A stretch of DNA of 8,138 nucleotides from Dehalococcoidales bacterium. Its GTDB lineage: Bacteria; Chloroflexota; Dehalococcoidia; Dehalococcoidales; UBA5760. The stretch's first letter is position 1, and each line of letters begins with the position of its first letter. The position numbers were made by a program, and so were the translations under genes. The notes under the pieces were generated by a model. It searched no databases and had not been told where the DNA came from. It saw only the letters and a list, made by a program, of their open reading frames with translations. Of the stretch, positions 1,968-8,138 are shown one piece after another. The stretch lies in the NCBI GenBank assembly GCA_018399795.1, contig JAGYOC010000119.1, positions 1 through 8,138 on the forward strand, given 5' to 3'.

Positions 1968-1996
1968 AATATCGATCGTTTGAAAGACCTTCTCAA
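1968..1996 (-). promoter_or_regulatory. Candidate sigma-70-type promoter for fmt-mazG
   Basis: On the minus strand TTGAGA (1996-1991, 5 of 6 to the -35 consensus) is followed after exactly 17 bases by GATATT (1973-1968, 4 of 6 to the -10 consensus). Transcription would start near 1961, giving a leader of about 75 bases before the fmt ATG. The -35 lies inside the first copy of the direct repeat and the -10 overlaps a TGTAATATC motif, so a protein binding either repeat could control the unit. Assigned from consensus match and spacing only. Confidence 0.35.
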
Positions 1997-2019
1997 GGAA
2001 AGATGGTTGATGTAATTTT
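1978..2019 (+). repeat. Direct repeat copy 1
   Basis: This copy begins GTTTGAAAGACCTT and ends TGTAATTTT. It shares the pattern GTTTGAARGACCTTYTYAAGG and, after ten unrelated bases, TGTAATTT with copy 2 exactly 230 bases to the right. The first block contains the interrupted palindrome CCTT-CTC-AAGG, which suggests a dimeric protein site. It overlaps the candidate fmt -35. Confidence 0.6.
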
Positions 2020-2401: not shown

Positions 2402-3736
2402 ATGACATCCAAACCCGCCCGGCAAGTATGGGAAGCCGCTCTGGGCGAGCTTCAGGTCCAGGTAAGCAAACACAATTTCCAGACTTGGTTTCAAAAAACA
2501 ATTGGTCTGAGTTTCGAGGGTGGCCAGTTCACCGTGGGCGTTCCCAATACATTCGTTGCCGAGTACCTTAACCGTAACCAGTTTTCCCTCATAGAGAAAA
2601 CCCTCATTGGAATCACACAACAGGATATCAAGGTGACCTTTCAGGTTACCGGTAACGGCGTAGCGCGCTGTGATAATGACAATGGTGCCAGCCATATGGA
2701 GGCCAGCCCTTATGCCAGTGCTATCAATCCAAAATACACCCTTGATTCATTCGTCGTGGGCAGTTCCAACCGGCTTGCCTATGCTGCAGCCAGGGGAATA
2801 GTCGAGAAGCCGGGCCGGGACTACAATCCGCTATTCATCTACGGGGGTGTTGGCCTTGGCAAAACGCACCTGCTGCATGGCATCGGGCACCTTTTTGCCG
2901 CCAATAGCCTCAAGGTCCATTACGCCAGTTGTGAGCAGTTTACCAACGAGTTTATCAGTTCCCTTCAAGACAGAAAAGCCGACGATTTCCGCAACCGGTA
3001 TCGGAATGCCGAGGTGCTCTTGATAGACGACATCCAGTTCATCAGTGGCAAGGAGCAGACCGAGGAGTGCTTCTTCCATACCTTCAACGAGCTCCACAAC
3101 GCCAACCACCAGATTGTTGTCACCTGTGATCGGGCCCCGAAAGCCATACCGCGCCTTGCCAGCAGACTGCGCTCGCGGTTCGAGTGGGGCCTTGTTGCCG
3201 ACATCCTACCGCCGGATTTTGAAACCCGCCTAGCAATCCTTCAGGCAAAGGCAAGGAATAAAGGCGAGAGCATTTCCCTGGATACGCTCGATTTTATCGC
3301 CAGAAGATCGCACCGAAATATCAGGGAGCTTGAAGGTAATCTCAACCGTGTGATAGCCTTTGCAAGATTATTCGATAGCATGCCCACCCAGGAGCTTGCC
3401 GCCAAAGCACTCGAGAATATTGCCGATAAGTCAAACGATGGCTCTGCCATAAACCCCATCCTCCTTGCCGAGGCTGTAGCCAGCAACTTCGAGTTGACTC
3501 TCGCGGACCTGAAGAGCCCTAAACGTGACAAGGAGACTTCCCTTGCCAGGCAACTGGCAATGTACTTGATGCACAACGATACCAACTGCCCGCTGGCCCA
3601 TATAGGCAGAGAACTGGGTAACCGAAACCCCTCAACAGTAAGTCATGCCTGTGAAAAAATCGCTTCCGATATTGTCACAAGCCCCTACCTCAAGAACAAG
3701 ATTGCCGCAATCCGAGATAACGCCTTTTCCTGTTGA
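2402..3736 (+). CDS. dnaA: Chromosomal replication initiator DnaA
   Basis: DnaA binds origin DNA, forms an ATP-dependent filament, opens the duplex and recruits the helicase loader. The 444-residue product has all four domains. Domain I spans about residues 5-82 and ends in an oligomerisation-type fold with QTWFQKT at 27-33. Domain II is a short linker of about 25 residues. The AAA+ core starts near 110: Walker A GGVGLGKTH at 148-156, Walker B LLIDD at 206-210, the SRF arginine-finger region at 258-260, and sensor-2 NIRELEG at 306-312. Domain IV begins near 350 and carries the helix-turn-helix. Its recognition loop, normally GGRDH(T/S)TV, is GNRNPSTV at 406-413, so the base-contacting Asp and His are Asn409 and Pro410. 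ATG 2402 has AAAGGGG close upstream and gives the usual N-terminus. The coding strand is C-rich, unlike obg-nadD-pyrE, which fits its lying on the opposite side of the origin. dnaN does not follow. Confidence 0.98.
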   Translation: MTSKPARQVWEAALGELQVQVSKHNFQTWFQKTIGLSFEGGQFTVGVPNTFVAEYLNRNQFSLIEKTLIGITQQDIKVTFQVTGNGVARCDNDNGASHMEASPYASAINPKYTLDSFVVGSSNRLAYAAARGIVEKPGRDYNPLFIYGGVGLGKTHLLHGIGHLFAANSLKVHYASCEQFTNEFISSLQDRKADDFRNRYRNAEVLLIDDIQFISGKEQTEECFFHTFNELHNANHQIVVTCDRAPKAIPRLASRLRSRFEWGLVADILPPDFETRLAILQAKARNKGESISLDTLDFIARRSHRNIRELEGNLNRVIAFARLFDSMPTQELAAKALENIADKSNDGSAINPILLAEAVASNFELTLADLKSPKRDKETSLARQLAMYLMHNDTNCPLAHIGRELGNRNPSTVSHACEKIASDIVTSPYLKNKIAAIRDNAFSC

Positions 3737-3810
3737 GCATCTTTCGACAGCCTTTCTATAACCGATGCAAATTCCGCACCCAATTTCTTGTGATATCATT
3801 CCTACTATAC

Positions 3811-3843
3811 ATATCCATAACCGATAATTTTAATTTTCGATAA
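3811..3843 (-). repeat. Cluster of three TTATSG motifs
   Basis: Read on the minus strand, TTATCG occurs at 3843-3838 and 3827-3822 and TTATGG at 3820-3815. All have the same orientation, at the edge of the A+T-rich stretch. The first four bases match the conserved start of a DnaA box while the second half does not. Given the altered recognition loop in DnaA these are candidate binding sites, but such short motifs can arise by chance in A+T-rich DNA. Confidence 0.25.
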
Positions 3844-4029
3844 TATTTTCAAAACCCATACACGGATTTGAACAATTGTTGCACAAAATGTTTACATCTT
3901 AATAAAACATTCTATAGATTATTCCCCCAGCGAAGCCTCAATTTAACATCATCCCTCACAAATATAGTACTCGCACTCCATTACGATATATATTATTATT
4001 GTTTATATGAAACCTATTATATGTCCTGA

Positions 4030-4038
4030 TGTTATAAT
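4030..4038 (+). promoter_or_regulatory. Extended -10 promoter for obg-nadD-pyrE
   Basis: TGTTATAAT (4030-4038) is a perfect extended -10 (TGnTATAAT). No good -35 stands 16-18 bases upstream, which extended -10 promoters tolerate. Transcription would begin near 4045, leaving about 30 bases before the obg start, with the ribosome site AAGG at 4062-4065. The TATAAT is also the right arm of a 7-base inverted repeat. Confidence 0.55.
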
Positions 4039-4074
4039 ATCTAATAATAGTGAACTTTTTTAAGGTAACATAAT

Positions 4075-5358
4075 ATGATTGATAGAGCAGAGATAAAGGT
4101 AAGAGCAGGAAAAGGTGGCAACGGGGCGATAAGCTTCCGACACGAGAAATTTGTTCCCTTCGGGGGTCCGGATGGTGGAGATGGAGGTAAAGGTGGCGAT
4201 GTGATAATGGTGGCCACTCGCGGCATAAGCACTTTGCGAAGATATAGCCTCAAACATTTCTATGCCGCTGAGAATGGAGGAGATGGCGGCGGCAGAAAGA
4301 TGCACGGCAAAAATGGAAAACATTCTGTGCTGGAGGTGCCTGAAGGGACAATGGTGCTGGAGAAACAGAAAGGTGGCGCTTATATTCAGCTAGCAGATTT
4401 AACTGAGCACAGGATGAGCGAGGTTGTGGCCAGGGGAGGTTCTGGTGGACTAGGGAACACGCATTTTACCTCATCGACCAATCAGGCCCCCAATATTTCA
4501 CAGCGGGGAGAAGAGGGTGAGGAAAAAGATATAGTTCTGGAATTGAGATTAATAGCTGATGCCGGTATAGTGGGATATCCGAACTGCGGAAAGTCGACAC
4601 TGGTAGCTTCATCATCAGCGGCAAGGCCCAAAATTGGCGAGTATCCTTTTACTACTCTTGAGCCCGTACTCGGAGTTGTGGAAGTCGGGGAAGAGAAGTT
4701 TATACTTGCCGAGATACCCGGCTTGATTGAGGGTGCCCATCTTGGCAAAGGACTTGGTCATGAATTCCTACGCCATGTGGCTCGCACAAGGGTATTGATA
4801 AATATGGTTGACGGTGCCTCAGAAAAGCCCGAAGAGGATATGGCACGGGTAAATGCCGAGCTGGCCATGTACGATAAGGCTCTGTCCAGTAAACTGCAAC
4901 TGGTTGTGGTGAATAAAATTGACCTTCCCTCAGTGAGGAACAAGGAGGCTGAGTTGAGGCGTAGTTTCGGTAAAGTAGGGATAAAGCCATATTTCATATC
5001 GGCCTCCACAGGTGAGGGTGTGGGAGATCTTATGGCTGATACTAAAGACCTTGTAGAAAAGGAGTGGTCTGGCCAGAGCGAAGCAAGGATGGAGGAAGAG
5101 GGGGAAAAACTGTTTCAGCCTGGGGAACGTATCAATAGACCGCGGGTGTGTAAAGAGGGCGATATTTTTTATATCAATTCTTCCGGGCTGGAACGAATAG
5201 TGGAGGGTGGTGGAAGCGGAACAGAAGCATACTGGTATGTGAGAAGGCGTTTGGAGAGGCAGGGTATAAACCGGGTGCTGAAGCGCAAGGGTATAAGACC
5301 AGGGGATAAGATTCGCTGCGGTAGCGTTGAATGGGAGTGGCGCGAGGGTGGGAGGTAG
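4075..5358 (+). CDS. obg: GTPase Obg (ObgE/CgtA)
   Basis: Obg is a slow GTPase that associates with the 50S ribosomal subunit and links ribosome assembly to growth and (p)ppGpp signalling. The 427-residue product has the full three-domain architecture. The N-terminal glycine-rich Obg fold covers residues 1-158, with GGDGGKGG at 34-41. The G domain has G1 GYPNCGKST at 167-175, switch I YPFTT at 190-194, G3 EIPG at 213-216, G4 NKID at 280-283 and G5 SAS at 309-311. The C-terminal OCT domain occupies about 345-424. Two departures from the common sequence are Cys171 in the P-loop, usually Ala, and Glu213 where the DxxG aspartate is usual; both are conservative and the protein looks functional. 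ATG 4075 follows AAGG by 9 bases. It is the first gene of a rightward unit with nadD 23 bases behind. The usual ribosomal-protein partners rplU and rpmA are not upstream. Confidence 0.97.
   Translation: MIDRAEIKVRAGKGGNGAISFRHEKFVPFGGPDGGDGGKGGDVIMVATRGISTLRRYSLKHFYAAENGGDGGGRKMHGKNGKHSVLEVPEGTMVLEKQKGGAYIQLADLTEHRMSEVVARGGSGGLGNTHFTSSTNQAPNISQRGEEGEEKDIVLELRLIADAGIVGYPNCGKSTLVASSSAARPKIGEYPFTTLEPVLGVVEVGEEKFILAEIPGLIEGAHLGKGLGHEFLRHVARTRVLINMVDGASEKPEEDMARVNAELAMYDKALSSKLQLVVVNKIDLPSVRNKEAELRRSFGKVGIKPYFISASTGEGVGDLMADTKDLVEKEWSGQSEARMEEEGEKLFQPGERINRPRVCKEGDIFYINSSGLERIVEGGGSGTEAYWYVRRRLERQGINRVLKRKGIRPGDKIRCGSVEWEWREGGR

Positions 5359-6026: not shown

Positions 6027-8138
<2,112 letters not shown>

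What the first reader, a model, noticed from the sequence alone, without database searches (positions are those of the whole stretch)
3737..4074. Strand composition flips between dnaA and obg, independent of gene direction
Hand counts of 60-base rows (G/C on the plus strand) left of the gap: 10/24 at 121, 13/21 at 1201, 11/20 at 3061, 17/23 at 3121, 15/20 at 3181, 13/20 at 3421 (one dnaA row, 3001, was 18/14). Right of it: 24/9 at 4141, 15/11 at 4861, 29/5 at 5341, 19/17 at 7021, 21/12 at 7081, 21/17 at 7201. mazG/fmt and dnaA lie on opposite strands yet share C excess. pyrE and gyrB lie on opposite strands yet share G excess. Inside the gap the sign changes around 4000-4030. Such a gene-independent flip from C excess to G excess marks replication origins in most bacteria.
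Basis: partly seen in the sequence, partly recalled or inferred. Interest (0 to 1): 0.75.

Follow-up and report, generated by a model that had tools for sequence, protein, structure and literature searches.

The report
Replication origin with shifted initiator sites
The composition flip marks the chromosome's replication start point in an uncultured Dehalococcoidia bacterium, and across its relatives the initiator protein DnaA and the DNA word it probably binds seem to have changed together.

Summary
In detail: all 13 hand counts are exact, the cumulative GC-skew minimum (3984) lies in the 338-base dnaA-obg gap, and third codon positions flip sign whatever the gene strand. The window is from a Dehalococcoidia bacterium. 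With flanks of up to 2.5 kb left and 1.2 kb right, 92 of 92 usable loci are C-rich left and G-rich right; in 85 the local minimum lies in this gap. In a single-contig 1.47-Mb relative the two arms meet there. So this is oriC, ordinary in kind; the window's own genome is not held.

Less ordinary are the DnaA boxes. The gap has no canonical box; the window's only two TTATNRAAA words both lie there. Across relatives the word follows DnaA's recognition helix: TTWTNCACA in 26 of 35 gaps where His434 is kept, 3 of 38 where Asp433 and His434 are both replaced; TTATNRAAA 3 of 35 against 29 of 38. TTATCGAAA was proposed for Dehalococcoides in 2008; the helix-box covariation I met nowhere in my searches. 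Shared ancestry is not excluded; binding is untested.

The parts
3737..4074 (.). dnaA-obg gap, proposed oriC; 30% G+C, GC skew -0.373
   Evidence: conserved position of the skew minimum
3980..3984 (.). cumulative keto (3980) and GC (3984) skew minima of the window
3835..3843 (-). TTATCGAAA, proposed DnaA box (exact match to the word proposed for Dehalococcoides)
   Evidence: word in PMC2275245
3753..3761 (-). TTATAGAAA, proposed DnaA box
3812..3820 (-). TTATGGATA, possible weak box in the same orientation
   Evidence: seen in the TTAT listing; no statistic
3987..4019 (.). AT-rich stretch with TTATTA (3993-3998) and CTATTA (4014-4019), possible unwinding site; runs of only two trinucleotides
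   Evidence: inference from relatives with longer runs
2402..3736 (+). dnaA, 444 aa, initiator
   Evidence: TIGR00362, E 1.2e-141
3623..3640 (+). codons of the recognition-helix motif RNPSTV, aligned to RDHTTV of E. coli and B. subtilis DnaA
   Evidence: 1j1v, 8btg; coordinates counted from the sequence
4075..5358 (+). obg (GTPase ObgE/CgtA), first gene of the right arm

Best explanation
The dnaA-obg gap is the chromosomal replication origin. DnaA, encoded next door, probably binds boxes of the type TTATCGAAA/TTATNRAAA in the left half of the gap, assembles onto the AT-rich right half and opens it; two forks leave in opposite directions. Different mutation pressures on leading and lagging strands then give C excess on the left and G excess on the right of the plus strand, whatever the gene direction. 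Shown here: the flip, its conservation, two arms meeting at this gap in one single-contig relative, and lineage-specific words enriched in the gap. Inferred: DnaA binding, unwinding and bidirectional start. The box differs from TTATCCACA probably because the Asp-His pair of the recognition helix is replaced (RDHTTV to RNPSTV).
For: Exact counts and third-position flip. 92 of 92 loci share the signs, 85 of 92 have the minimum in the gap. Two arms in G043 meet in its gap. 80-kb minimum in the gap in 3 of 5 contigs sampled, G156, G085, G159. In 8 genomes where dnaA is not followed by obg, 6 of 8 keep TTATC[AG]AAA within 450 bases upstream of obg, while 1 of 8 has one around dnaA; in G050 the sign change lies near obg, not at dnaA. 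The only two TTATNRAAA words of the window lie in the gap. Words follow the helix class.
Against: No genome is held for the window. G072 and G115 do not have the long-range minimum in the gap; G069 and G052 have no clear arms; in G050 the 40-kb minimum is 14 kb left of obg. With one mismatch allowed, 3 of the 5 TTATCGAAA-like sites of the window lie outside the gap, and 10 of 200 shuffles also gave two TTATNRAAA words. The strict trinucleotide run in the window is only 2.
Confidence: 0.9

Rival explanations
1. The flip is a by-product of gene content: amino-acid and codon preference or transcription gives each neighbouring gene its own skew.
For: First codon positions do follow gene direction (for example dnaA +0.159, gyrB -0.156 on the plus strand).
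Against: Third positions flip whatever the strand; the same signs in 92 of 92 loci; arms of hundreds of kilobases in G043.
Confidence: 0.03
2. The origin is upstream of dnaA, in the 516-base fmt-dnaA gap, and the dnaA-obg gap only happens to be near it.
For: Many bacteria have boxes upstream of dnaA (general knowledge). The upstream gap is long and has a repeated element.
Against: dnaA itself still has left-arm skew. Upstream gaps hold few boxes: TTWTNCACA 0 of 34 in the His class, TTATC[AG]AAA 1 of 40 in the replaced class, against 26 of 35 and 20 of 38 in the dnaA-obg gap.
Confidence: 0.04
3. The sign change is an inversion or assembly junction.
For: Such junctions also give abrupt sign changes.
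Against: fmt(-) dnaA(+) obg(+) nadD(+) order and the flip are kept in many separate assemblies.
Confidence: 0.01
4. The origin is real, but the match between helix class and box word is shared ancestry and not a causal change of DnaA specificity.
For: Only 1 or 2 independent contrasts lie on well-supported branches, too few for a test; 6 and 5 on the best trees. The Asp-Pro/Ala class is one clade. The classes were drawn after seeing the sequences. For absence of TTWTNCACA some contrasts go the other way (0.1 of 1, 0.2 of 2).
Against: The classes need 12 or 13 changes on the best trees. For TTATNRAAA contrasts go with the helix in 0.6 of 1 and 1.1 of 2 pairs on average and against it in 0.0 (rounded). 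His kept with Asp lost leaves the canonical word (12 of 16) and gives TTATNRAAA in 0 of 16. The residues are ones reported to touch bases (PMC5043019, passages).
Confidence: 0.3

Closest known systems
oriC of Dehalococcoides as predicted by Ori-Finder (PMC2275245, passages seen)
   Same: Same class of bacteria; TTATCGAAA is the word proposed there for Dehalococcoides, and one exact copy lies in this gap.
   Different: The paper passage names the word only; no link to DnaA's helix is made in the passages I saw, and other words in the order are not mentioned there.
Origin next to dnaA with DnaA boxes and DnaA-trios (basal unwinding system, PMC8287927, passages seen)
   Same: Box side and AT-rich side within an intergenic gap downstream of dnaA; relatives have CTA/TTA runs of 3 or more in 29 of 92 gaps against 5.5 expected.
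   Different: The window has runs of only 2 by the strict count, and its boxes are not TTATCCACA.
Epsilonproteobacterial DnaA-box specificity (PMC5043019, passages seen)
   Same: A lineage-specific DnaA/box pairing attributed to residues at the start of the recognition helix.
   Different: There the pair at 433-434 is described as highly conservative and 435, 438-439 vary; here the pair itself is replaced.

Membership tests
bacterial chromosomal origin (oriC) | strand-composition minimum that does not follow gene direction | tested here: met
   window; 85 of 92 loci with the minimum in the gap
bacterial chromosomal origin (oriC) | meeting point of two chromosome arms | tested here: inconclusive
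   not testable for the window; met in G043; near obg in G050; not seen in G069 and G052
bacterial chromosomal origin (oriC) | cluster of boxes bound by its own DnaA | tested here: inconclusive
   two TTATNRAAA words, both in the gap; lineage words enriched in relatives; binding not testable here
bacterial chromosomal origin (oriC) | AT-rich intergenic unwinding region near the boxes | tested here: met
   gap 30% G+C against 50-58% in the genes; unwinding itself not tested
origin with canonical E. coli-type boxes | TTWTNCACA in the origin | tested here: not met
   no exact match in the gap; one exact match in the window, inside dnaA; window total at chance level with one mismatch
basal unwinding system (BUS) | three or more DnaA-trios beside a box | tested here: inconclusive
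   runs of 2 of [CT]TA in the window; 29 of 92 loci have 3 or more; the paper's looser NAN pattern was not run
DnaA with canonical recognition helix | Asp-His at E. coli positions 433-434 | tested here: not met
   RNPSTV against RDHTTV in the alignments to 8btg and 1j1v
DnaA family | NCBIfam DnaA equivalog score above cut-off | tested here: met
   TIGR00362, 472.7 bits against 343.9

The most novel reading that the evidence does not exclude
Within one bacterial order the DnaA recognition helix and the DnaA box have repeatedly switched together: His434 kept goes with TTATC[CA]ACA; Asp433 and His434 both replaced goes with TTATC[GA]AAA; Asp433 kept with His434 replaced (and Gln408 to Arg in 16 of 16) goes with CACAAAA words. 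His434 rather than Asp433 would be the residue tied to the C at box position 8. An initiator code thought nearly invariant would then be evolvable.
Probability: 0.5. Interest if true: 0.65.

Novelty: new variant of a known kind. Interest (0 to 1): 0.45.

Why it matters
It places the origin in a group of mostly uncultured bacteria and shows why a search for TTATCCACA would miss it. If the covariation is causal, Dehalococcoidales is a natural series for asking how an essential initiator changes its binding code while replication goes on. It also warns that records numbered from dnaA need not start at the origin (G050).

Tried and rejected
Canonical box scan of the window with one mismatch: 10 matches, 10.07 expected. 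EM motif discovery with a simple background converged on low-complexity stretches in four of five sets and was dropped in favour of k-mer counts against dinucleotide shuffles and base tables after a fixed TTATC core. A pattern for a repeated leader element upstream of dnaA matched 1 of 96 upstream gaps, so that lead is unquantified. G069 and G052 gave no clear arms. Rfam at E up to 1: only AsdA, 23.1 bits against a gathering score of 52, E 0.27, taken as chance. A terminus was rejected because it would have the opposite sign. A paper search for the string TTATCGAAA gave 116 papers; the 20 listed look unrelated by title, and the other 96 were not seen.

Rows left out of counts: 20 loci outside Dehalococcoidia of 135 kept after removal of identical DnaA C-termini; loci without a dnaA-gap-obg arrangement; L108 (helix gapped) from the class counts; 2 RDRTTV and 4 REPITV-like loci are counted apart; 5 of 97 loci with short flanks; L149, L152 and L117 (and L108) from the trees. 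Helix classes were drawn after looking at the sequences, so P values are descriptive.

Full report
WHAT IS THERE. The window carries mazG(-), fmt(-), dnaA(+), a 338-base gap, obg(+), nadD(+), pyrE(+) and gyrB(-), named by NCBIfam models (gyrB and mazG are cut by the window ends). The hand counts are exact. Cumulative GC skew falls to 3984 and rises after. Third codon positions are C-rich in all three genes to the left and G-rich in all four to the right, on both strands.

WHOSE IT IS. A scan of species genomes with DnaA gives Dehalococcoidia first (best 70% identity, L001 and L002; 63 loci in all). No genome is held for the window. A search of the order of L002's genome gave a match at E up to 0.001 in 149 of 156 genomes, a few of them only weak. 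I fetched dnaA regions from some of these and, after removal of identical DnaA C-termini, kept 135 loci, of which 115 remain after 20 outside Dehalococcoidia are set aside; 97, window included, have the dnaA-gap-obg arrangement.

THE FLIP IS AN ORIGIN. In 92 of these 97 with enough flank, left skew (up to 2.5 kb) is negative and right skew (up to 1.2 kb) positive in all 92, and the local cumulative minimum lies in the gap (20 bases tolerance) in 85. With up to 4 kb a side, 29 of 32 are negative left and 32 of 32 positive right. In G043, one contig of 1,469,720 bases (a length I recall as that of Dehalococcoides mccartyi 195; the collection gives no name), 12 of 12 sampled stretches between 1 and 828 kb are positive and 7 of 8 from 882 kb on negative; the minimum of the first 20 kb, 1737, lies in its gap 1599-1923. 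In G156, the nearest relative on a long contig, the 80-kb minimum is in the gap, 263 bases past the dnaA match; G085 and G159 agree; G072 and G115 do not. G069 and G052 show no clear arms. Genome-scale support is thus good in some relatives and missing in others.

A NATURAL TEST. In eight genomes (G046-G053; two of the lengths I recall as Dehalogenimonas) obg does not follow dnaA; the distance runs from about 3 kb across the record ends (G047, G048, if circular) to hundreds of kilobases. Six of 8 keep TTATC[AG]AAA within 450 bases upstream of obg, and all 8 have TTATC there; around dnaA (up to 600 bases upstream, as far as held, and 800 downstream) 1 of 8, L128, has TTATC[AG]AAA. In G050 ten of ten stretches from 1.316 Mb through the record start to 0.53 Mb are positive, nine of nine from 0.59 to 1.28 Mb negative (the last two only -0.005 and -0.001), one at 1.296 Mb is 0.000; the 40-kb minimum lies 14 kb left of obg, whereas dnaA at 254 lies inside the positive arm. 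The origin seems to have stayed with the obg side.

THE BOXES. TTATCCACA-type sites are at chance level in the window. Among the most enriched 9-mers of the gaps against dinucleotide shuffles were TTATCCACA where DnaA has His at the E. coli 434 position (9 of 19 and 6 of 14 gaps) and TTATCGAAA where Asp433 and His434 are replaced by Asn/Ser/Thr/Ala/Ile and Pro/Ala (13 of 38). Counts per gap: TTWTNCACA 26 of 35 (His kept) against 3 of 38 (both replaced), Fisher 3e-9; TTATC[AG]AAA 0 of 35 against 20 of 38, 9e-8; TTATNRAAA 3 of 35 against 29 of 38; in the Asp-Pro/Ala class CACAAAA 11 of 17, against 4 of 35 and 1 of 38. In flanking coding sequence TTWTNCACA is at 0.25-0.27 per kb in these two classes, against 3.79 in His-class gaps, and TTATNRAAA at 0.30 per kb in the replaced class, against 4.62 in its gaps. 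The fmt-dnaA gap has TTWTNCACA in 0 of 34 (His) and 5 of 40 (replaced), TTATNRAAA in 5 of 34 and 3 of 40. With only the TTATC core fixed, box position 8 is C in 64% of 59 sites (His class) and A in 73% of 94 sites (replaced class); 0 of 2000 permutations of gap labels reached the observed difference, a test that ignores kinship. Inside the order set alone: TTWTNCACA 14 of 19 against 3 of 38, TTATNRAAA 3 of 19 against 29 of 38. Where Asp433 is lost but His434 kept, TTWTNCACA is in 12 of 16 and TTATNRAAA in 0 of 16; only 3 of those 16 are in the order set, most others are one other clade. Exceptions: 3 of 38 replaced-class gaps have TTWTNCACA (L005, L009, L134), 9 of 35 His-class gaps lack it, 9 of 38 replaced-class gaps lack TTATNRAAA. 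In the window the two TTATNRAAA words, 3835-3843 and 3753-3761, both minus strand, are the only ones in 8138 bases (0.40 expected; 10 of 200 shuffles reached 2); with one mismatch to TTATCGAAA there are 5 sites, 3 of them outside the gap.

STRUCTURE. The window's domain IV aligns without gaps through the helix with 8btg (B. subtilis) and 1j1v (E. coli); RNPSTV stands over RDHTTV. By PMC5043019 (passages) residues 399, 423, 432-435 and 438-439 make base contacts, and the 433-434 pair is highly conservative. PMC11511705 (passages) calls the box consensus widely conserved. The numbers 433, 434 and 408 for window residues rest on that alignment and on E. coli numbering from the paper and from recall.

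INDEPENDENCE. On a tree of DnaA without domain IV the classes need 12 changes; on a concatenate of DnaA, Obg, Fmt, NadD and MazG, 13. Well-supported branches force only 2 or 4 changes for each of the two main classes and leave 1 or 2 independent pairs. Over random pairings TTATNRAAA goes with the helix in 0.6 of 1 and 1.1 of 2 and against it in 0.0 (rounded); absence of TTWTNCACA goes with it in 0.4 of 1 and 0.8 of 2 and against it in 0.1 and 0.2. That cannot reach significance, so shared ancestry is a real rival.

MECHANISM. Likely steps: DnaA binds the lineage boxes on the left of the gap and extends onto the AT-rich right part, where relatives have CTA/TTA runs of 3 or more (29 of 92; shuffles mean 5.5, largest 17; 10 of 92 on the other strand), opens it, and helicase is loaded both ways. 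The window itself has runs of only 2. The left fork would meet dnaA head-on. All beyond the sequence features is inference from general oriC biology.

NOVELTY. The word TTATCGAAA for Dehalococcoides was proposed in 2008 (PMC2275245, passages), so neither the kind of origin nor that word is new. I met no report of the helix-box covariation in the listings of searches of an open-licence library that lacks most subscription papers; listings were capped.

Noticed in passing
L194-L201 (G046-G053): In eight genomes obg does not follow dnaA; 6 of 8 keep TTATC[AG]AAA just upstream of obg, so the origin seems to have stayed with obg. Records of G047, G048, G050, G051 and G052 begin just before dnaA.
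   Followed up: partly
L091-L097, L102, L106, L107, L110, L113, L114, L116, L119, L146: One clade has DnaA with Asp-Pro/Ala at 433-434 and Arg in place of Gln408 (16 of 16 in the order set) and CACAAAA words in the gap (10 of 16).
   Followed up: partly
L003 and L075: Close sister loci (support 100/99) with different helices, RNPATV and REPITV, and differently worded gaps.
   Followed up: no
window 1987-2001, 2217-2231; L001 3099-3620; L002 2750-3278: Upstream of dnaA a leader-like element appears twice about 230 bases apart, by eye almost identical copies in L001 and L002, weak in the window. My pattern for it failed.
   Followed up: partly
L174-L193 (G069), L223-L242 (G052): Two long single-contig genomes of the order show no clear two-arm skew; rearrangement or misassembly not examined.
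   Followed up: no
L007 (G007): DnaA runs into unknown bases near residue 400 and obg lies some 0.63 Mb away in the same record, which suggests an assembly gap at the origin.
   Followed up: no
window 2840-2913, minus: Weak Rfam match to AsdA (antisense RNA of dnaA), far below its gathering score; probably chance.
   Followed up: no
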